This document shows, piece after piece, positions 1-63,953 of a DNA stretch of 64,000 bases (the first letter of the stretch is position 1; the number at the start of each line of letters is the position of its first letter). The translations under genes were made by a program, and so were the position numbers. Location of the stretch: NCBI GenBank assembly GCA_029866215.1, contig JARWZU010000003.1, forward strand, positions 40,724 through 104,723, read 5' to 3'. The notes under the pieces are model-generated. The model did no database searches, was not told where the DNA came from, and saw only the letters and a program-made list of their open reading frames with translations. This DNA is from Akkermansiaceae bacterium. GTDB taxonomy: Bacteria > Verrucomicrobiota > Verrucomicrobiia > Verrucomicrobiales > Akkermansiaceae.

Positions 1-78
1 ATCGAGGACGCCGCCATCCGGCGGATCAATGGGACACCGCCCCATCCATAGTCCCTGCACCCGCCGCCGCCGCCGACA

Positions 79-345
79 GCCAATTCCCAGGCGCTGTCAG
101 TCAATTCCCAGCCGCTGTCAGTCAATTCCCAGGCGCTGTCAGCTCATTCCCAGGCGCTGTCAGTCAGTTCCCAAGTCCTGTCAGCCAATTCCCAGCCGCT
201 GTCAGCTCATTCCCAGGCGCTGTCAGTCAATTCCCAAGTCCTGTCAGCCAATTCCCAGGCGCTGTCAGCCAATTCCCAAGAGCTGTCAGCTCATTCGCAA
301 GTCCTGTTAGCCACTTTCCCGTTCCTGTCCATCGATTCCTCATCT
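79..345 (+). repeat. 21-bp tandem repeat array, about 12-13 units
   Basis: Units of the form CAATTCCCAGGCGCTGTCAGT repeat with a strict 21-bp period and decay toward the right edge. Because 21 is a multiple of three, plus-strand frames read as heptads (xNSQxLS, QSIPRRC or SQFPGAV depending on frame). The frame giving heptads NSQALSx ends at a TAG at 358 but is blocked on its left by a TAG at 49. The ORF-track frame has no recognisable domain. Heptad-coding 21-bp repeats also occur inside the AlbA_2 gene at 4.15-4.23 kb, so this could be the tail of a similar, decayed gene entering from the left. Coding status is unresolved. Confidence 0.85.
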
Positions 346-5783: not shown

Positions 5784-7016
5784 TCATACAAACATCTGCT
5801 GCAACAGCCCTTTCTTGAAGGTTTGGGTGTGGCTGATCTGCGAGGAAACGCTTTCGATCTTGCGGTCGAGCGCGGTGAGAAAGTTGGCGATCTTGGTTTG
5901 TTCGGGGATCGACGGGAACCCAAACTTGAACTTCTTTAGGTCGCTTCCATTGATGGAGTTGATCGTGGCTCCGAGATTGATGTGAACATATCGTTTATAC
6001 GTATCAGTCTGCAAAAGCTGGAACACGAATCGGTTCTGTCCTCCTCTTAGAACTGTCATGAATGCACCGTGAGTTGAAGAAGGTCCGCCTTCAGGAATGA
6101 TTGCGTTCTTCCCAATCAAATTTTTTGAGCCGTTTCGCACACAGATTAAAATGTCATCAGGTCGGGACATGTTCCACTCGTTCACTTCAACTTTCACAAA
6201 CACGTTATCATCGAAGACGATTTGACCATTTTGCACATTCGAGGAACGAAGGACCAATAAGCCATCTGGTGCCACATTTTCAGGAGTGTAAGTCAACCCG
6301 CTGACGAGTTCGCACACCTCCCCCAGCGTCTTCTCCTCCCACTCGGGGAAGTCGTTGCCGTGGTCGTCTTTGAAGCGGAGGGCTTGGGTGAAGAGCTGTT
6401 GCATCACGCCCTTCTTGTAGTCCTCCAGCAGGGCTTTCTTTTGGCTCAGTTGCCCAATCCGCCCATCCACATCCGTCAAGAATTCCGCGATCTTCCGCTG
6501 CTCGGGGAGCGTGGGATAGCTGAGCGGTATCTGCACAAAGACTTTTGATTTGATGCCCTTGGCTGTTGACCCTGTTCCTTTAGCGTCAATGGCTTTTTGA
6601 GCCGTTTCCGATCTCAACAAGTGAAAGAGGAACACTGAATGGCATCGCGATGAATCAGCTTGAAGCGTGATAATGCGCTGGCCTAGCGCGTAACGCCCGG
6701 AGGATGGATACAACGCTACATTTCCAAGCGGAGCTTCGGTCGTGAACAAGACGTCGTCCGCCTGTGGTATCCCTCTTCTCATCCACATGTCGTATTGATC
6801 TTCCTCAATGTATTCATCGGCGGTAAAATCCAGATAGCCTTCCCTCACGTTCCTGGCGGTGATCAACGGAACCCCACTGTCGGCTTTCGGCGGAGCTTTA
6901 CCTCTATAGTCGATAACTTTTTTCAGTTGCTCGGAAATCGTGCTGACTTCCCACTCTCCCTTAAATCCAGGAAACCGGAGCTCTGGCACATGCTGCTGTT
7001 CGGTCCTCGCAGTCAT
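5784..7016 (-). CDS. hsdS: Type I R-M specificity subunit (HsdS)
   Basis: This is the DNA-recognition subunit shared by the methylase and nuclease forms. About 410 aa hold two target-recognition domains, each followed by a conserved helical spacer with the family signature (PTLPEQRKIAEFLTDVDGRI near residue 185, PSIPEQTKIANFLTALDRKI near 380). The two halves are parallel in design but differ in sequence, implying a bipartite asymmetric target. I prefer the ATG at 7016 (TGATG overlap with the hsdM stop) over the GTG at 7019 used in the ORF track. Overlap with hsdM implies translational coupling. The target sequence cannot be read from the protein alone. Confidence 0.93.
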   Translation of the reverse strand: MTARTEQQHVPELRFPGFKGEWEVSTISEQLKKVIDYRGKAPPKADSGVPLITARNVREGYLDFTADEYIEEDQYDMWMRRGIPQADDVLFTTEAPLGNVALYPSSGRYALGQRIITLQADSSRCHSVFLFHLLRSETAQKAIDAKGTGSTAKGIKSKVFVQIPLSYPTLPEQRKIAEFLTDVDGRIGQLSQKKALLEDYKKGVMQQLFTQALRFKDDHGNDFPEWEEKTLGEVCELVSGLTYTPENVAPDGLLVLRSSNVQNGQIVFDDNVFVKVEVNEWNMSRPDDILICVRNGSKNLIGKNAIIPEGGPSSTHGAFMTVLRGGQNRFVFQLLQTDTYKRYVHINLGATINSINGSDLKKFKFGFPSIPEQTKIANFLTALDRKIESVSSQISHTQTFKKGLLQQMFV

Positions 7017-8584
7017 CACAGTGGCGTTTTGATTCCCAGTTCCGCACAGAAACTAGCGATGAACTGATTCGTTCTCGACATTTCGCTCTCTAAAGCCGTG
7101 AGCTTTGATGCAATCTCATCCAGATTGATTGAATCCTCTTTGTCGAAGGTATCGACGAAACGCGGGATGTTCAGGTTGTAGTCGTTTTCCTCCACCTCGC
7201 TCTGCTCGGCGACGTGGCTGAACTTGGCGATGCTCTCCCGTTTCTGATAGGTGCTGACGATGCGCTCGATGTGCTCGGGACGGAGCTTATTTTGGTTGCC
7301 CACCTTTTCAAACCCTTGGCTGGCGTCGATGAAGAGGATGTCATCGGGGTTCTCGCGCTGCTTTTTGAAGACGAGAACGCAGGTGGGAATGCCAGCACCG
7401 TAGAAGATATTGGCCGGAAGGCCGATGACGGCATCGAGGTAGTTGCAATCCTCGATGAGGTAGCGGCGGATGTGCCCCTCCGCACCGCCACGGAACAAGA
7501 CGCCGTGCGGCAGGACGCAGGCCATGGTGGCGCCGCTGTCCAGGTGGTGGACCATGTGCTGGACGAAGGCGAAGTCGGCCTTGGTCTTGGGGGCCAGCTT
7601 GCCATAGGCGCTGAAGCGGTCGTCGCTCTCATGGATGGCGCTGGCGGACCAGTCGGCGGAGAAGGGCGGATTGGCGACGATGGCCTCGAAGCGCAGGTCG
7701 GCGTGCTCAGGCGCGGGATGCTCCAGGGTGTCCTCGTTCTTCAGGTCGAAGCGCTGATAATGCACGCCGTGCAGGATCATGTTCATGCGGGCGAGGTTGT
7801 AGGTGGTGGGGTTCATCTCCTGCCCGTAGAAGTGGCCCACATCCTCAACCTCCTTCGCCACGCGCAGCAGCAGGGAGCCAGAGCCGCAGGTGGGGTCATA
7901 GACGCTCTTGAGCTTCTTTTTCCCGGTGGTGACGATCTTCGCCAGAATGGTGCTGACCTCCTGCGGCGTGTAGAACTCGCCGGCCTTTTTCCCCGCACCG
8001 CTGGCGAACTGCCCGATGAGGTATTCATAGGCATCCCCCAGCACGTCGGCCTCAGTATCGGCGAGGCGGAAGTCGATCTTGTCGAGGTGGGCGAGAACCT
8101 TGGCGATGAGTTCGTTTTTCTGGTTCTCGGTTTTCCCGAGCTTGGACGAGCCGAGATCGAGATCCTCGAACAGCCCCTCGAAGTCATCCTCGCTGGCGTG
8201 GCCCATGGTGCTGGCCTCGATGTGCTTGAGGACGGCGGTGAGGTCTTCGAGGATGAAGTTGTCGGTCTTCTGGGCGCCTTTTCCCGCCACCTTGGAGAAG
8301 AGTTCGGTGGGTTTCAGGAAGTAGCCGAGGCGTTCGATGGCCTCCTCCTTGATGGCGGCGAGCAATTCAGAGCCCTTTTTCGTGGTTTCGTCGATGAAGT
8401 CGAACTTGATGCCGTCGTGCTTCAAGATCTCATCCGCGAAGAGGTGCATCCGCTCGGAGAGGTATTTGTAGAAGATGAAGCCGAGGATGTAGTCGCGGAA
8501 CTCATCCGCGCCCATTTTACCGCGGAGGGTATTGGCGATGTTCCAGAGCTGGGTTTGGAGGGTCTTCTTGTGGTCTTCGGACAT
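7016..8584 (-). CDS. hsdM: Type I R-M DNA methyltransferase subunit (HsdM)
   Basis: This N6-adenine methyltransferase of 522 aa has an N-terminal helical HsdM_N domain (TLQTQLWNIANTLRG, FYKYLSERMH). The catalytic domain contains the SAM motif VYDPTCGSGSLLL (near residue 225) and the catalytic NPPF (EAIVANPPFSADW, near 310). Residues such as GEFYTPQEVS before the SAM motif are typical of the family. It is the first gene of the operon and is followed by hsdS with a TGATG overlap. It appears complete. Long opposite-strand ORFs here, including a 481-aa one, are GC-driven shadows. Confidence 0.96.
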   Translation of the reverse strand: MSEDHKKTLQTQLWNIANTLRGKMGADEFRDYILGFIFYKYLSERMHLFADEILKHDGIKFDFIDETTKKGSELLAAIKEEAIERLGYFLKPTELFSKVAGKGAQKTDNFILEDLTAVLKHIEASTMGHASEDDFEGLFEDLDLGSSKLGKTENQKNELIAKVLAHLDKIDFRLADTEADVLGDAYEYLIGQFASGAGKKAGEFYTPQEVSTILAKIVTTGKKKLKSVYDPTCGSGSLLLRVAKEVEDVGHFYGQEMNPTTYNLARMNMILHGVHYQRFDLKNEDTLEHPAPEHADLRFEAIVANPPFSADWSASAIHESDDRFSAYGKLAPKTKADFAFVQHMVHHLDSGATMACVLPHGVLFRGGAEGHIRRYLIEDCNYLDAVIGLPANIFYGAGIPTCVLVFKKQRENPDDILFIDASQGFEKVGNQNKLRPEHIERIVSTYQKRESIAKFSHVAEQSEVEENDYNLNIPRFVDTFDKEDSINLDEIASKLTALESEMSRTNQFIASFCAELGIKTPL

Positions 8585-8903
8585 AAAAATTGGATATCGG
8601 ATGCTCCCACTTTAGCAGCAGGCGTGGGACAAATAGGGGGATACGCTCAAAAAATCTGAAAGAAGTTTCACTTTTGGAGAATTTCAAACCCTGTGTGCCG
8701 TGATCGTTCACCTTTGAGCATCTGCCTCAAGGAAAATTCTAACATTCATGAGCGGATCCGGGGTTGGATTTGGCTGGGGATTTCTCGCTTCCACGAGGTG
8801 GTCTCAGGGATAGCTCGGGTGGCAGATGGGGCCGGTGCGACGCAGGCGGCGTGCGCGGAGGCCTCAATGGCTGATACGGAGGCGAAATTGCCCACCTGCA
8901 GGA
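8585..8903. other. Intergenic region upstream of hsdM
   Basis: This is the left part of the 560-bp divergent spacer between hsdM and the TonB receptor gene. It must hold the hsd promoter, but I could not fix a -10/-35 pair. A 110-aa plus-strand ORF (8693-9025) spans it but resembles no protein, and its right half runs through the conserved element at 8904-9041. Confidence 0.5.
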
Positions 8904-9041
8904 AGGAATTTGAAATTCAGCACTCTCTCACCCAATGGGTGAACCCGTTAGGCATTGGTTTTCGTTTTCAAACGCCGACACGATCAGCACTTGTGCTCCT
9001 CGGCATCAATTTCAACGGCGGATGAGAGGTAAAAATAACGT
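8904..9041 (-). repeat. Conserved intergenic element, copy A (candidate structured RNA)
   Basis: Read on the minus strand, this stretch aligns over about 130 bp with 44121-44250 on the plus strand. Shared blocks include GTCGGCGTTTGAA, a GAAAAC block and GTTCACCCA. Hairpins here are AGCAC-AA-GTGCT inside GCCGA...TCGGC, CGTTT-GA-AAACG, and TCACCCA-T-TGGGTGA. Several substitutions between copies keep pairing or turn it into a G-T wobble, although some pairs are lost. Placement between divergent genes argues against a simple terminator. Its function is unknown. Confidence 0.7.
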
Positions 9042-9144: not shown

Positions 9145-11244
9145 ATGAATTCCCCGCTCCCGCTCATCCTTCTCGCCGCAGCTGCTCCGGCATTTGCCCA
9201 AAGCCTACTGGACCCACTCGTCGTCACCGCTTCCCGCTCGGAACAAGAATCCAGCCAAACGCCTTATTCGACGACGATGCTCGATGCGGACTATTTACGG
9301 GAAAACACCCGGCGTACCTTACCCGATGCTTTGCAATACACGCCGGGAATTCTCATTCAAAAAACCGCTCACGGTCACGGCTCCCCATTCATCCGCGGCT
9401 TCACCGGGCGACAGAATCTCTTGCTCGTCGATGGCGTGCGCGTGAATAACTCCACCTTCCGCAGCGGCGCGGTCCAGTATTGGAATACCGTCGATTCTCT
9501 CGCCATCGACCACCTGGAATTGATCAAAAGCCAAGGTTCCGTGCTTTACGGCTCCGATGCGATCGGCGGCACCCTCAATGCCTTTACCAAATCCTCTGAC
9601 TTCCGCAGCAAGCCCGCGGATCAATTCTATCAGGCAGGGTCCGCCGCGTATGAATACCGCAGCAATGGCCAAGGGAGCCACATCGGACGCCTTGAGGCAG
9701 AAACTGGCATCGGCGGTCAATTCGGCGCATGGCTGGGAATCTCTACCAAGGAATTTGGGGATATCGAAGACTCTGCCGTCGGGCGCATGAAAAATACCGG
9801 CTACCCCGAGAAAGATCTCGATCTGCGCTTCGACTGGGCGCTCTCACCTCACTCGACCGTCACCCTTGCGCACCATTCGATCAACCAAGACGATGTCTCA
9901 CGCTGGCATCGCACGTCGGAGAATCCCGGCTGGACTCACGGCAGCCATGTCGCCACCCCCGGAACTTGGGCGGCCGATACCTACGACCAAGAACGATCCC
10001 TGACCTACCTCCGCTACGCCGGAGAAAATGCCACTGCCCAAGCGCCGATCCAACGCTGGAGCTCGACGCTGTCATTCCAAACCTCCGCCGATTCCGAATT
10101 TCAAAATCGCACGGGCGATCCCAGCGCCGGTAGCCAGCCGATCCGCAACACATCGATCGACCTGCAAACGACAGGACTCGACCTGCTCCTCGAATCTGCC
10201 GTCGGTCCGGGCTCGCTCGTCTATGGCGTCGATTATTACCACGATGAGGTCGATTCATTCGGAAGTAAAAACAACCTCGCGGGCACCAGGTATGCCGAGA
10301 GTCTGCCGATCGCCGACGATTCCCAATACGATCTGCTTGGCGCGTACGCTCAATACATTTGGCAAACCACCGAGCGCCTCGAAATCACCAGTGGCGCCCG
10401 CTACACCTTGGCCCAAGCCCATCTCGGTCGCTTCGCCGGTGGCACTGATCAATCGCGCGAGTGGGATGCAACCGTCGGCTCCTTGCGCGGCAGCTATGCG
10501 GTCAATGACGCCTGGAATCTCTTCGGCGGAGTCGCTCAAGCGTTTCGCGCGCCCAATCTCGATGACCTCTCTGGCAATTTAGTTTCCAAATCCGGCAATA
10601 CCGCCTTGGGCGCCGTGGACGTCAACCCCGAGCATTTTCTCACCTACGAACTCGGCACTCGGCATCATACCGAAAACACCTCCCTCAGCCTCGCCGTTTT
10701 CTACACCGACGTGCAAGATTTGATCGTCTCCGCCTACACCGACCCATCGCTCAAGACCTCCATCGCTACCAATGCAGGCGACGGCTACATGAAAGGCGTC
10801 GAACTGGAAGGTGCCTGGCGCTTCCAACCGCAATGGACACTTTCCGGCTTCACCGCCTGGCAAGACGGCCGCACTCAATCGCCATCCTACGTCGGCGGGG
10901 CCATTACCGATAAACCAAACTCCCGCCTCCTTCCGCTTTCTGGCTCCCTCGCCCTCCGCTGGGACGATCCTTCTAAAAAAATCTGGATCGAGGGCCGCAT
11001 CCTCGGTGCCATCGCCGAAGACCGGATCGACCCGGTTGACCAAGCGGCCGACAGTCAGCGCGTGCCCACAGGCGGCACCCCCGGCTACCTCGTCACCTCC
11101 CTCCGCGCAGGTTGGAGCGTCACTCCACGGCTCAATCTCACCTGCGGCATCGAGAACCTAACGGACGAAGACTACCGCAATCACGGCTCCGGCCAAAACG
11201 AGCCGGGGGTCAACGGCATCTTCGGCGCTAAAGTCACTTGGTAA
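9145..11244 (+). CDS. TonB-dependent outer-membrane receptor
   Basis: 699 aa with a signal peptide (LILLAAAAPAFAQ) followed by a TonB-box-like stretch (DPLVVTAS). A plug domain (about 35-155) has family motifs IRGFTGRQNLLLVDGVRVN and GSVLYGSDAIGGTLN. A long beta-barrel ends in the typical NLTDEDYRNHGSG and a final aromatic residue (VTW). It imports a scarce ligand such as a siderophore, cobalamin or another metal complex using TonB energy. The ligand cannot be told from the sequence, and I saw no cobalamin riboswitch upstream. The next plus-strand gene is an MFS transporter, which may handle a related substrate, but this is only proximity. Confidence 0.93.
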   Translation: MNSPLPLILLAAAAPAFAQSLLDPLVVTASRSEQESSQTPYSTTMLDADYLRENTRRTLPDALQYTPGILIQKTAHGHGSPFIRGFTGRQNLLLVDGVRVNNSTFRSGAVQYWNTVDSLAIDHLELIKSQGSVLYGSDAIGGTLNAFTKSSDFRSKPADQFYQAGSAAYEYRSNGQGSHIGRLEAETGIGGQFGAWLGISTKEFGDIEDSAVGRMKNTGYPEKDLDLRFDWALSPHSTVTLAHHSINQDDVSRWHRTSENPGWTHGSHVATPGTWAADTYDQERSLTYLRYAGENATAQAPIQRWSSTLSFQTSADSEFQNRTGDPSAGSQPIRNTSIDLQTTGLDLLLESAVGPGSLVYGVDYYHDEVDSFGSKNNLAGTRYAESLPIADDSQYDLLGAYAQYIWQTTERLEITSGARYTLAQAHLGRFAGGTDQSREWDATVGSLRGSYAVNDAWNLFGGVAQAFRAPNLDDLSGNLVSKSGNTALGAVDVNPEHFLTYELGTRHHTENTSLSLAVFYTDVQDLIVSAYTDPSLKTSIATNAGDGYMKGVELEGAWRFQPQWTLSGFTAWQDGRTQSPSYVGGAITDKPNSRLLPLSGSLALRWDDPSKKIWIEGRILGAIAEDRIDPVDQAADSQRVPTGGTPGYLVTSLRAGWSVTPRLNLTCGIENLTDEDYRNHGSGQNEPGVNGIFGAKVTW

Positions 11245-44120: not shown

Positions 44121-44250
44121 TTTCTTTTAACTTCTTATCCGCAGTTGAGAGGAATGACGAGGCGCACAGGTGTTGATCTTGTCGGCGTTTGAAGACGAAA
44201 ACTAACGTACCATGAGTTCACCCAACGAGTGAAAGAGAGGAATTTGAGGG
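44121..44250 (+). repeat. Conserved intergenic element, copy B (candidate structured RNA)
   Basis: This aligns with the minus strand of 8904-9041. Blocks shared include TGTCGGCGTTTGAA, ACGAAAAC and GTTCACCCA. Hairpins correspond to those in copy A with changed bases: GCAC-AG-GTGT, CGTTT-GA-AGACG (one G-T wobble) and TTCACCC-AAC-GAGTGAA (one mismatch). It starts directly after the stop of the EEP-family gene. It is followed by simple-repeat DNA, so a role as 3' RNA is possible but copy A is not 3' of a gene. Confidence 0.7.
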
Positions 44251-44310
44251 TGTCAAAATTTTTGTGTAAGTTCAGATTTGCAGATTGCGGTTAGTGGGAG
44301 GTTGGGATGG

Positions 44311-44367
44311 ATCGTCATCACCGTCATCACCGTCATCACCGTCAGCATCGTCAGCATCGTCAGCATC
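44311..44367 (+). repeat. 9-bp tandem repeats (GTCATCACC)3 and (GTCAGCATC)3
   Basis: Three units of GTCATCACC are followed by three of the related GTCAGCATC, with no interruption. It is a simple low-complexity array. Confidence 0.9.
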
Positions 44368-44466
44368 GTTGCTTGGGTTGCCATGCGCACGGTGGGGGAA
44401 TCGGGTTGGGACCTGGCGACCTTCTTGACGGAGAATGGGTCGATGACCGCCTCAATATTGGGGTTC

Positions 44467-44729
44467 CCGTGCGCGATGTACGCCTCCCGTTACGCGATGT
44501 AAAGGTGCCCGTACATCATGTTCGGGTGCTTGTGCGCGATGTAAAGTTGCCCGTACATCATGTTCGGGTGCTTGTGCACGATGTAAAGTTGCCCGTACAT
44601 CATGTTCGGGTGCTTGTGCGCGATGTAAAATTGCCCGTGCATCATGTTCGGGTGCTTGTGCGCGATGTAAAATTGCCCGTGCACGATGTAATAGCACCCG
44701 TGCACGAGGTAATGGCACCCGTGCACAAC
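44467..44729 (+). repeat. 42-bp tandem repeats built of two 21-bp halves
   Basis: Four nearly identical 42-bp units occur in the middle (44508-44676); each consists of two related 21-bp halves, GCGCGATGTAAAGTTGCCCGT and ACATCATGTTCGGGTGCTTGT. Degenerate 21-bp units flank them on both sides. The nested structure points to duplication of a 21-bp unit, divergence, then amplification of the pair. All units keep the 3n length, leaving long open frames on both strands. Confidence 0.9.
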
Positions 44730-44897
44730 GGAACTGACCCCCGGTGCGCGAGAAGACATGGAAAGGCACATCCCCCACGCGAGGATTGATAATTAACGAG
44801 TCACACCTGAAACGGGTTGAAAATCATCCCGCCGAAGCTCCGCTGCCAGTGCCCGTGCCTGAGTCATCTGCATCCCAACTGCGGATTCTAGGTTTAT

Positions 44898-61512: not shown

Positions 61513-61553
61513 TTCATAAGTGTCATAGTTTGCAGACCTATGACACTTATGAA
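61513..61553. repeat. Subterminal hairpin, left end of IS66
   Basis: TTCATAAGTGTCATAG and its exact complement CTATGACACTTATGAA are separated by the 9-nt loop TTTGCAGAC. The tnpA ORF starts inside the right arm, so the structure may shield its start codon or bind transposase. Confidence 0.9.
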
Positions 61554-61929
61554 TGAATCTCTCTTGAAGACTGATCGGATTGGCCGCCTGCGCTATACTC
61601 CGGAGCAGAAAAAGACCATGGTGGACGCCTACCGCGCTAGCGGTTTGAGCGCACCTCGCTTCGCGGCACATCATGGCGTGAGCTATCAAACTTTGATTTC
61701 GTGGATCAAGAAGGACAATCAATCCTCCGTATCCACAACATCAAATGCCTCTCTTTCCCCGTTCTTCTCTCTGGTCCCGGCGGTGATCGAGGACAGCGGA
61801 ACGCTTGCGGCGCACGAAGCCATGGAAATAGCCCTGCCGGGTGGAGTGAGGCTTCGCATTGCATCCGCCAGCCACATTGCCCTTGCCGTCGCCCTGATTC
61901 GCCAACTCGAAGCTGCCAAGCCATGCTGA
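61540..61929 (+). CDS. tnpA: IS66 accessory transposition protein TnpA
   Basis: 129 aa; start could be 61540 or the in-frame ATG at 61549. N-terminal helix-turn-helix: YTPEQKKTMVDAYRASGLSAPRFAAHHGVSYQTLISWIKK, followed by a serine-rich linker and a C-terminal segment EIALPGGVRLRIASASHIALAVALIRQLEA typical of IS66 OrfA. It binds DNA during transposition. Overlaps tnpB by 7 bp (ATGCTGA). Confidence 0.92.
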   Translation: MTLMNESLLKTDRIGRLRYTPEQKKTMVDAYRASGLSAPRFAAHHGVSYQTLISWIKKDNQSSVSTTSNASLSPFFSLVPAVIEDSGTLAAHEAMEIALPGGVRLRIASASHIALAVALIRQLEAAKPC

Positions 61930-62276
61930 GCTTCTCCGGCAGTTTGAAAGTATTCGTGGCGGTGGAGCCCTGTGACATGCGCCGGAGCTTCAACGGCCTG
62001 CATAACGCGGTTAGCACAATGTTGATGGAAGATCCGAAAAGCGGCTCCATTTATGCCTTTACCAACAAGCGTCGCAGCCTACTCAAGATCCTCTACTGGG
62101 ATGGCAGCGGCCTCTGGGTCCTTGCGAAAAGACTTGAGCGAGGAACCTTCTCCTGGCCCAAGGCCTCCGACGTAAAGGACGGTAAACTTCGCCTCAATTC
62201 TACCGCGCTCGCGCTTCTGCTTGACGGTATCGACATGCGTGATGGTTGCCAGCGGCCATGGTATGAAATTCGATGA
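61923..62276 (+). CDS. tnpB: IS66 accessory transposition protein TnpB
   Basis: About 117 aa from the ATG at 61923, which overlaps the tnpA stop (ATGCTGA). IS66 OrfB signature: VFVAVEPCDMRRSFNGLHNAVSTML, IYAFTNKRRSLLKILYWDGSGLWVLAKRLERGTFSWP and a C-terminal LLLDGIDMRDG. Needed for IS66 transposition; its exact step is not known. The ORF-track start at 61701 is an extension in the wrong part of tnpA. Confidence 0.94.
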   Translation: MLSFSGSLKVFVAVEPCDMRRSFNGLHNAVSTMLMEDPKSGSIYAFTNKRRSLLKILYWDGSGLWVLAKRLERGTFSWPKASDVKDGKLRLNSTALALLLDGIDMRDGCQRPWYEIR

Positions 62277-62333
62277 TTTATGTTAGTCTATCACGATCAA
62301 ATGGCATGTATTTTGCTACTATGTATTTAGTAA

Positions 62334-63911
62334 ATGGACGAAGACGAAAAACAAAAGTTGCTAGAAAAAATCGCCCAACGCGACGAGGTTATCGCCCGCC
62401 AAGCCGCCGAGATCGTTGTGTTGAAGCAGACCATCGATGCTCTTTGCAGGCGAATCTTCGGCACCTCCAGCGAGAAGCTCGACCCCGCCCAACTTGAACT
62501 CATGCTCGGAGGCGACCTCGCAAAAAAAGCCCCCTCCGCCGTTCCCGCAGACCCAGGACCGGCGGCTGAGATCCCCACCCACAAGAAGCCTGCCAAAAGG
62601 ACCCGCGCCCCACGCATCCCCGAACACCTGCCCATCGTCCGCGAAGAACTCGACCCGCCCGAAGTCCGGCTCAATCCCGGAGCCTTCCGCCGCATCGGCG
62701 AGGAAGTGCGCGAACAGCTCGCCTTCAAACCCGCCGAGTTCTTCCGCATCCAACTCGTGCGCGGAAAATACGTCCGCAAAAACGATCCCACGGCCAAGCC
62801 CTCCATCAGCCCGCTGCCACCCTCCCTGCAAGACCGCTGCATCGCCACGCCCGGCCTCATCGCCGAAGTGATCGACAACCGCTTCATCTGCCATCTGCCC
62901 TACTACCGGCAGTCGGAAATGTTCGCCCGCATGGGAGTCCACCTCCACCGCAAAACCCTCTGCGACTGGACGCTTCTCGCCGCCGACTGGCTCTCGATCA
63001 TTTACCGCGAAATCCAATACGACCATTGGAGAGCACTTTACCGACAGATTGACGAAACCCCCATCGACTACCTCCAACCCGGCAGCGGCAAAGCGCAAAC
63101 CGGCTACCTCTGGACGTCTAACATCCCCGGCGGAACCGTCTTCTATCACTGGCACGACGGCCGCGACGCCAAAGGCATGACCGGACTCTTTAAGAAAATC
63201 GAGACCACCGATCCAGAGGACCTGGCCGATCCTGAGAACCTCCCGCTCCTGCGCATCATCCAATGTGATGGCTACGCCGTCTATCCATCCTGGGCCAAGG
63301 ATAAAGCATGGATCAAACTCATGGGCTGCCACTCCCACGTTAGACGGAAATTTTTCGAAGCTACCGAACAATCGCCGCGGCTTGTCGGCTGGATCCTGCG
63401 CCAGCTCGCCCACCTCTATCACATCGAAAAGCGCCTGCGCGAAATCAAGGCCGGCCCCGCCCTGCGCGAAGCCGTCCGTGCTGCCGAAAGCCGCATGATC
63501 CACCGGCGTCTCAAGAAAGCCATCGACAAACTCGCCCTCCGCCGTTCCATCCTGCCCAAAAGCAAACTCGGCAAAGCCATCAGCTACGCAATCAACCAAT
63601 GGCCCAACCTCGAAACCTATCTCGGCGACGGCCGGGTGGAAATCTGCAACAACTTGGTCGAAAACGCGATTCGCCCGACCAAGCTTGGTGCGAAAAACTG
63701 GCTGTTCATCGGCAATGAAGCGTCCGGCCAGAAGTGCGCCATCCTCTACACCATCGTGGAAAACTGCCGCCGCTTGGGAATCCATCCGAAAGAATACCTC
63801 ACCGACGTTCTCACCCGTCTGCCCGGCATGCTGGCCAAAGACGCCATCACGCTGACCCCAGCCAACTGGCTCAAAGCCCGCAGTGGGAAAAGCGTTCGTA
63901 AGGTAGCCTGA
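62334..63911 (+). CDS. tnpC: IS66 transposase TnpC
   Basis: 525 aa. N-terminal leucine-zipper-like helix (EKIAQRDEVIARQAAEIVVLKQTIDALCRRIFGTSSEK), a zinc-binding-like IS66 part with a PPEVRLNPGAFRRIGEEV stretch, and the catalytic domain with the first aspartate in YRQIDETPIDYL, IIQCDGYAVYPSW and GCHSHVRRKFFEA; the C-terminal NNLVENAIRPTKLGAKNWLFIGNEASGQ holds the final acidic residue. DDE-type transposase, complete, spaced 57 bp after tnpB. Strong opposite-strand ORF 62361-63977 is a shadow. Confidence 0.96.
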   Translation: MDEDEKQKLLEKIAQRDEVIARQAAEIVVLKQTIDALCRRIFGTSSEKLDPAQLELMLGGDLAKKAPSAVPADPGPAAEIPTHKKPAKRTRAPRIPEHLPIVREELDPPEVRLNPGAFRRIGEEVREQLAFKPAEFFRIQLVRGKYVRKNDPTAKPSISPLPPSLQDRCIATPGLIAEVIDNRFICHLPYYRQSEMFARMGVHLHRKTLCDWTLLAADWLSIIYREIQYDHWRALYRQIDETPIDYLQPGSGKAQTGYLWTSNIPGGTVFYHWHDGRDAKGMTGLFKKIETTDPEDLADPENLPLLRIIQCDGYAVYPSWAKDKAWIKLMGCHSHVRRKFFEATEQSPRLVGWILRQLAHLYHIEKRLREIKAGPALREAVRAAESRMIHRRLKKAIDKLALRRSILPKSKLGKAISYAINQWPNLETYLGDGRVEICNNLVENAIRPTKLGAKNWLFIGNEASGQKCAILYTIVENCRRLGIHPKEYLTDVLTRLPGMLAKDAITLTPANWLKARSGKSVRKVA

Positions 63912-63912
63912 C

Positions 63913-63953
63913 TTCATAAGTGTCATCGATCTGCAAACGATGACACCTATGAT
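63913..63953. repeat. Subterminal hairpin, right end of IS66
   Basis: TTCATAAGTGTCATCG, loop ATCTGCAAA, then CGATGACACCTATGAT; 14 of 16 pairs match. The loop is the reverse complement of the left loop apart from one base, so this is an inverted copy of the left hairpin, starting just after the tnpC stop. Confidence 0.88.

What the first reader, a model, noticed from the sequence alone, without database searches (positions are those of the whole stretch)
8904..9041. Two-copy intergenic element with preserved hairpins (copy A), shared with 44121-44250
Seen directly: about 130 bp on the minus strand here aligns with the plus strand at 44121-44250, across both ends and in the middle (GTCGGCGTTTGAA, GTTCACCCA). 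Three hairpin positions recur in both copies: around AGCAC/GTGCT, CGTTTGAAAACG and TCACCCATTGGGTGA. At some positions the sequence changes while pairing is kept or becomes G-T wobble, though not every pair survives. Two copies 35 kb apart, in intergenic DNA next to unrelated genes and in opposite orientations, point to a dispersed element or a structured RNA family rather than a local regulator. I know no named family matching it.
Basis: partly seen in the sequence, partly recalled or inferred. Interest (0 to 1): 0.75.

Follow-up and report, generated by a model that had tools for sequence, protein, structure and literature searches.

The report
Left ends of decayed IS1380 transposons
The two matching stretches are worn-down left ends of an ordinary bacterial jumping gene (an IS1380-family insertion sequence) scattered around this genome, not a new structured RNA.

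Summary
The repeat is real, but it is not a two-copy RNA element. It is the left terminus of an IS1380-family insertion sequence. About 33 places in the 3.03-Mb genome match the element, 25 of them with E below 1e-10. A complete 1,580-bp relative in the same genus (L119) has terminal repeats CCTCTAATCCGCAGTT / CCTAGAATCCGCAGTT and one ~480-aa transposase above the curated cut-offs of NF033539 (IS1380) and PF13701. Copy A (8861-9029, minus) matches the first 168 nt of that IS at 75% and is a truncated left end. Copy B (44131-44892, plus) has both terminal repeats; a 9-bp array and a 21/42-bp minisatellite replace the transposase. The three palindromes lie in the conserved leader, which runs into the transposase start. 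Across 26 copies, changes that keep pairing are no commoner than in shuffled columns, and the window copies fold no better than shuffles. No intact transposase of this type was found in this genome. Verdict: an ordinary decayed IS plus a MITE-like (non-autonomous) derivative family, a new member of a known kind. Only the minisatellite-filled derivative is mildly unusual.

The parts
8861..9029 (-). Copy A: truncated left end of an IS1380-family element (IRL, leader and about 24 decayed transposase codons); no right end found nearby
   Evidence: 75% identity to nt 1-168 of the complete IS in L119, E 1e-29; minus-strand frame TKTNA*RVHPLGERVLNFKFLPAGGQFRLRIS 66% identical to the IS transposase N-terminus; right-end search no better than shuffles
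9014..9029 (-). Left terminal inverted repeat (IRL) of copy A, CCTCTCATCCGCCGTT
   Evidence: 2 mismatches to CCTCTAATCCGCAGTT
44131..44892 (+). Copy B: 762-bp non-autonomous IS1380-derived element with both terminal repeats
   Evidence: nt 3-108 of the IS at 73% and its last 29 nt at 93%; flanking 5-mers TTTAA/TTTAT, 4 of 5 equal
44131..44146 (+). IRL of copy B, CTTCTTATCCGCAGTT
44877..44892 (+). Right terminal inverted repeat (IRR) of copy B, AACTGCGGATTCTAGG
   Evidence: exact match to the IRR of the complete IS
44311..44369 (+). 9-bp tandem array inside copy B (ATCGTCAGC, 6.6 copies)
   Evidence: Tandem Repeats Finder
44493..44726 (+). 21/42-bp minisatellite inside copy B, in the place of the transposase body
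   Evidence: Tandem Repeats Finder; same array in other own-genome copies

Best explanation
The repeat is the left terminus of an IS1380-family insertion sequence: a 16-bp terminal inverted repeat, then a ~100-nt leader holding the palindromes, then the first transposase codons. Intact relatives presumably transpose by their DDE transposase acting on IRL and IRR and making a 5-bp target duplication. In this genome only relics and internally deleted derivatives were found, many with a 21-bp minisatellite between the ends; they would have needed a transposase in trans to move. Shown: the ends, the homology, the transposase in relatives and the decay. Inferred: past movement in trans and any role of the palindromes, such as subterminal transposase binding or shielding the start from read-through transcripts.
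For: About 33 matching places in the own genome. Complete 1,580-bp element with matching ends and an open ~480-aa transposase, NF033539 200 bits against cut-off 180 and PF13701 128.8 against 34.7. Copies A and B align to its first 168 and 106 nt or so; copy B also matches its last 29 nt at 93%. Substitutions by codon position run 2nd < 1st < 3rd from about nt 109 on, in own and relatives' copies. Perfect 5-bp flanking duplications in L012 (ATGAT), L058 (ATGAA) and L108 (TTCAT). Series of internally deleted forms from 135 to 1,125 bp.
Against: Most elements with both ends do not show a perfect target duplication, and the permutation test is only suggestive (p 0.07; some elements were counted from both strands). 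No intact transposase of this type was found in the window's own genome. The ~100-nt leader is conserved but does not show a coding pattern, so it may carry a function of its own. The exact transposase start codon is not settled.
Confidence: 0.96

Rival explanations
1. A structured non-coding RNA family spread through the genome, with the three hairpins as its functional fold.
For: Three palindromes keep about 90% of cells paired across 26 copies, far above slid controls of about 40%. The complete IS leader folds better than its shuffles, z -3.0.
Against: Changes on both sides of a pair are no commoner than in shuffled columns (258/500), and the covariation score is not raised (122/500). RNAalifold consensus energy is only -1.77 kcal/mol. 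The window copies and two other copies fold no better than shuffles. No Rfam match. The sequence runs into a transposase gene with terminal repeats.
Confidence: 0.03
2. The leader palindromes are functional within the IS: as RNA they hide the transposase start from read-through transcripts, or as DNA they are subterminal transposase binding sites. This adds to the best explanation and does not replace it.
For: The third palindrome (TTCACCCA..TGGGTGAA) spans or adjoins the likely transposase start (its central codon is ATG, TTG, CTG or ACG in different copies) and is 92% paired. The leader is conserved without a coding substitution pattern.
Against: No covariation, no promoter call in the leader, start codon not settled; nothing measured.
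Confidence: 0.35
3. An ordinary cis-regulatory motif of the neighbouring genes (a TonB-dependent receptor gene beside copy A).
For: Copy A lies about 115 bp upstream of the TonB-receptor-like ORF at 9145.
Against: Copies lie in many places and in either orientation, with transposon ends and insertion-like flanks.
Confidence: 0.01

Closest known systems
IS1380 family of insertion sequences (NCBIfam NF033539; e.g. ISEcp1, ISPme1)
   Same: DDE transposase above the curated cut-offs, single open frame, about 1.6 kb, inverted ends beginning CC (CCTAGAATCC..), and 5-bp duplication in some copies. ISEcp1 makes a 5-bp duplication, TATGA (PMC2887853); the similarity of the terminal bases to ISEcp1 is from memory.
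   Different: Own-genome copies are relics without an intact transposase. No closely related IS was found in PLSDB plasmids.
MITEs and other non-autonomous IS derivatives
   Same: Both terminal repeats kept, transposase lost, many dispersed copies, 135-762 bp.
   Different: Own-genome forms carry a 21-bp minisatellite array rather than only a shortened IS.
Transposable modules (TMos) of IS1380 elements such as ISPme1
   Same: IS1380 members can mobilise DNA next to the element's 3' end by misreading the terminus (PMC9330008), a possible route for minisatellite capture.
   Different: Here the added DNA lies between the ends and the transposase is missing; the route was not tested.

Membership tests
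IS1380 family insertion sequence | Transposase of the IS1380 family | tested here: met
   Complete relative L119: NF033539 200.2 bits (cut-off 180), PF13701 128.8 bits (cut-off 34.7). Met by the autonomous relative; window copy A keeps only a decayed N-terminal piece.
IS1380 family insertion sequence | Terminal inverted repeats shared by element and derivatives | tested here: met
   IRL CCTCTAATCCGCAGTT and IRR CCTAGAATCCGCAGTT in L119; both ends in copy B, left end only in copy A.
IS1380 family insertion sequence | Target duplication of 4-5 bp | tested here: inconclusive
   Perfect 5-bp repeats in L012, L058, L108; 4 of 5 in copy B, L006 and L014; absent in others; permutation p 0.07.
MITE / non-autonomous IS derivative | Both terminal repeats without a functional transposase, in several copies | tested here: met
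   Copy B and own-genome L004, L006, L008, L012; no intact transposase of this type found in the genome.
Known structured RNA (Rfam) | Match to a curated covariance model at gathering score | tested here: not met
   No match in the whole window.
Novel structured RNA | Compensatory base-pair changes beyond chance | tested here: not met
   2 pairs with changes on both sides, reached by 258 of 500 shuffles; covariation score reached by 122 of 500.

The most novel reading that the evidence does not exclude
A minisatellite-loaded, non-autonomous IS1380 derivative has spread through this Akkermansiaceae genome, with a 21/42-bp near-palindromic array as cargo between IS ends, and its conserved leader acts as a structured control element of transposition.
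Probability: 0.2. Interest if true: 0.3.

Novelty: new member of a known kind. Interest (0 to 1): 0.12.

Why it matters
It removes a candidate RNA family and replaces it with a mobile-element annotation. Elements with 21-bp arrays are dispersed repeats and several sit at contig ends (C12, C50, C54), so they probably break assemblies of this genome. The minisatellite-filled derivatives are a small case for studying how IS1380 ends come to enclose foreign repeats.

Tried and rejected
Rfam scan of the window: nothing. Integron attC site, considered because of GCCTAAC in copy A: rejected by reading, since copy B and the other copies lack it. Protein read from copy B's array (ORF 44307-44789): no Pfam match, and other copies have stops in that frame by reading, so it is taken as non-coding. 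Right end for copy A: best match no better than shuffles. PF13701 in the own genome: none. Reading the whole 130 nt as transposase codons: rejected because nt 17-108 lack the coding substitution pattern and several relatives carry a stop there. Phage and plasmid collections: no relative in phages; one 61-nt match inside a transposase gene on a Polaromonas plasmid.

Full report
Observation. The window holds an inverted pair, 8923-9038 and 44122-44237, 116 nt and 77% complementary, the longest inverted repeat found.

Copy number. A search of the window's own genome (3,025,235 bases, 88 contigs) with the 138-nt copy A gave 19 matches with E below 1e-3, most of them spanning 75-138 nt. Reading on past the finding showed that conserved sequence continues 3' of it, in many copies into a 21/42-bp tandem array. 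A search with the ~745-bp copy on contig 65 (L004) matched about 33 separate places, 25 of them with E below 1e-10 (places merged by hand). The ends are inverted repeats: CCTCTAATCCGCAGTT on the left and AACTGCGGATTCTAGG on the right.

Relatives. In a search of 59 genomes (own included), eleven matched, all of the same genus. Seven of the ten relatives match the left end (G006, G011, G013, G014, G016, G023, G032); G001 matches only the array, and G002 and G024 only the flank of the query beyond the element. Named genome contigs with the left end are nearly all Akkermansiaceae or Verrucomicrobiaceae MAGs. In relatives the left end runs into an open frame that matches the IS1380 transposase model NF033539 (E 3e-10). 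A genus search found a complete element on L119: 1,580 bp, both terminal repeats, one open frame giving about 480 aa from the likely start. That protein scores 200 bits against NF033539 (cut-off 180) and 129 against PF13701 (cut-off 34.7).

What A and B are. Copy A (9029 down to 8861) matches nt 1-168 of the IS at 75%, E 1e-29. Its minus-strand frame reads TKTNA*RVHPLGERVLNFKFLPAGGQFRLRIS, 66% identical to the IS N-terminus, with stops. No right end lies near it. Copy B (44131-44892) matches nt 3-108 at 73% and the last 29 nt at 93%. Its middle is a 9-bp array and a 21/42-bp minisatellite. A related 21-bp array occurs without IS ends in relatives G001 and G011, so in the own genome it looks like captured DNA. 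Capture is an inference.

The hairpins. The three palindromes lie in about nt 30-105 of the left end. Across 26 copies about 90% of cells are paired, but pair-preserving double changes are as common in shuffles (258/500) and the covariation score is not raised (122/500). RNAalifold finds almost no consensus energy. The window copies fold like shuffles; the complete IS leader folds better than its shuffles (z -3.0), while two other relatives do not. From about nt 109 on, substitutions follow a coding pattern (2nd < 1st < 3rd position), but nt 17-108 do not. The palindromes are therefore in a conserved leader that ends at or near the transposase start. A control role is possible and untested.

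Insertion marks. Perfect 5-bp flanking repeats were seen at L012, L058 and L108, and 4 of 5 at copy B, L006 and L014; others have none. The IS1380 member ISEcp1 makes 5-bp duplications (PMC2887853). Internally deleted forms of 135, 136, 187, 204, 317, 378 and 606-762 bp, and partly deleted ones of 1,078 and 1,125 bp, form a series down to MITE size. No intact transposase of this kind was found in the own genome. One more distant IS1380-like fragment lies near the end of contig C56 (30% identity), so an intact source copy in an assembly gap cannot be excluded.

Verdict. This is a decayed left end (A) and a non-autonomous derivative (B) of an IS1380-family insertion sequence, a new member of a known kind and of low interest.

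Noticed in passing
window 61513-63952: An apparently intact IS66-family element: TnpB (PF05717) at 61701-62276 and a 525-aa TnpC (PF03050) at 62334-63911, bounded by 40-nt palindromic inverted repeats TTCATAAGTGTCAT.
   Followed up: partly
window 44493-44726 and own-genome copies L003-L012: A 21/42-bp near-palindromic minisatellite (GATGTAAAGTTGCCCGTACATCATGTTCGGGTGCTTGTGCGC) fills many IS1380 derivatives; related 21-bp arrays occur without IS ends in relatives L062 and L073.
   Followed up: partly
L010 / L015 (G000:C73:24701-24895): Two left ends of the IS lie head to head and form a large near-palindrome.
   Followed up: no
L093 and G000:C56:29447-29869: A second, more distant IS1380-like lineage: L093 has an open 484-aa frame between ends CCCGAAATCCGAAGTT, and the own genome has a fragment with the same left end near the end of contig C56.
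   Followed up: no
window 77-313: A 21/63-bp tandem array with unit CAGCCAATTCCCAGGCGCTGT, unrelated in sequence to the IS minisatellite.
   Followed up: no
window 5784-8584 (minus): Two genes that read as a type I restriction-modification specificity subunit and methyltransferase, just beside copy A (by reading only).
   Followed up: no
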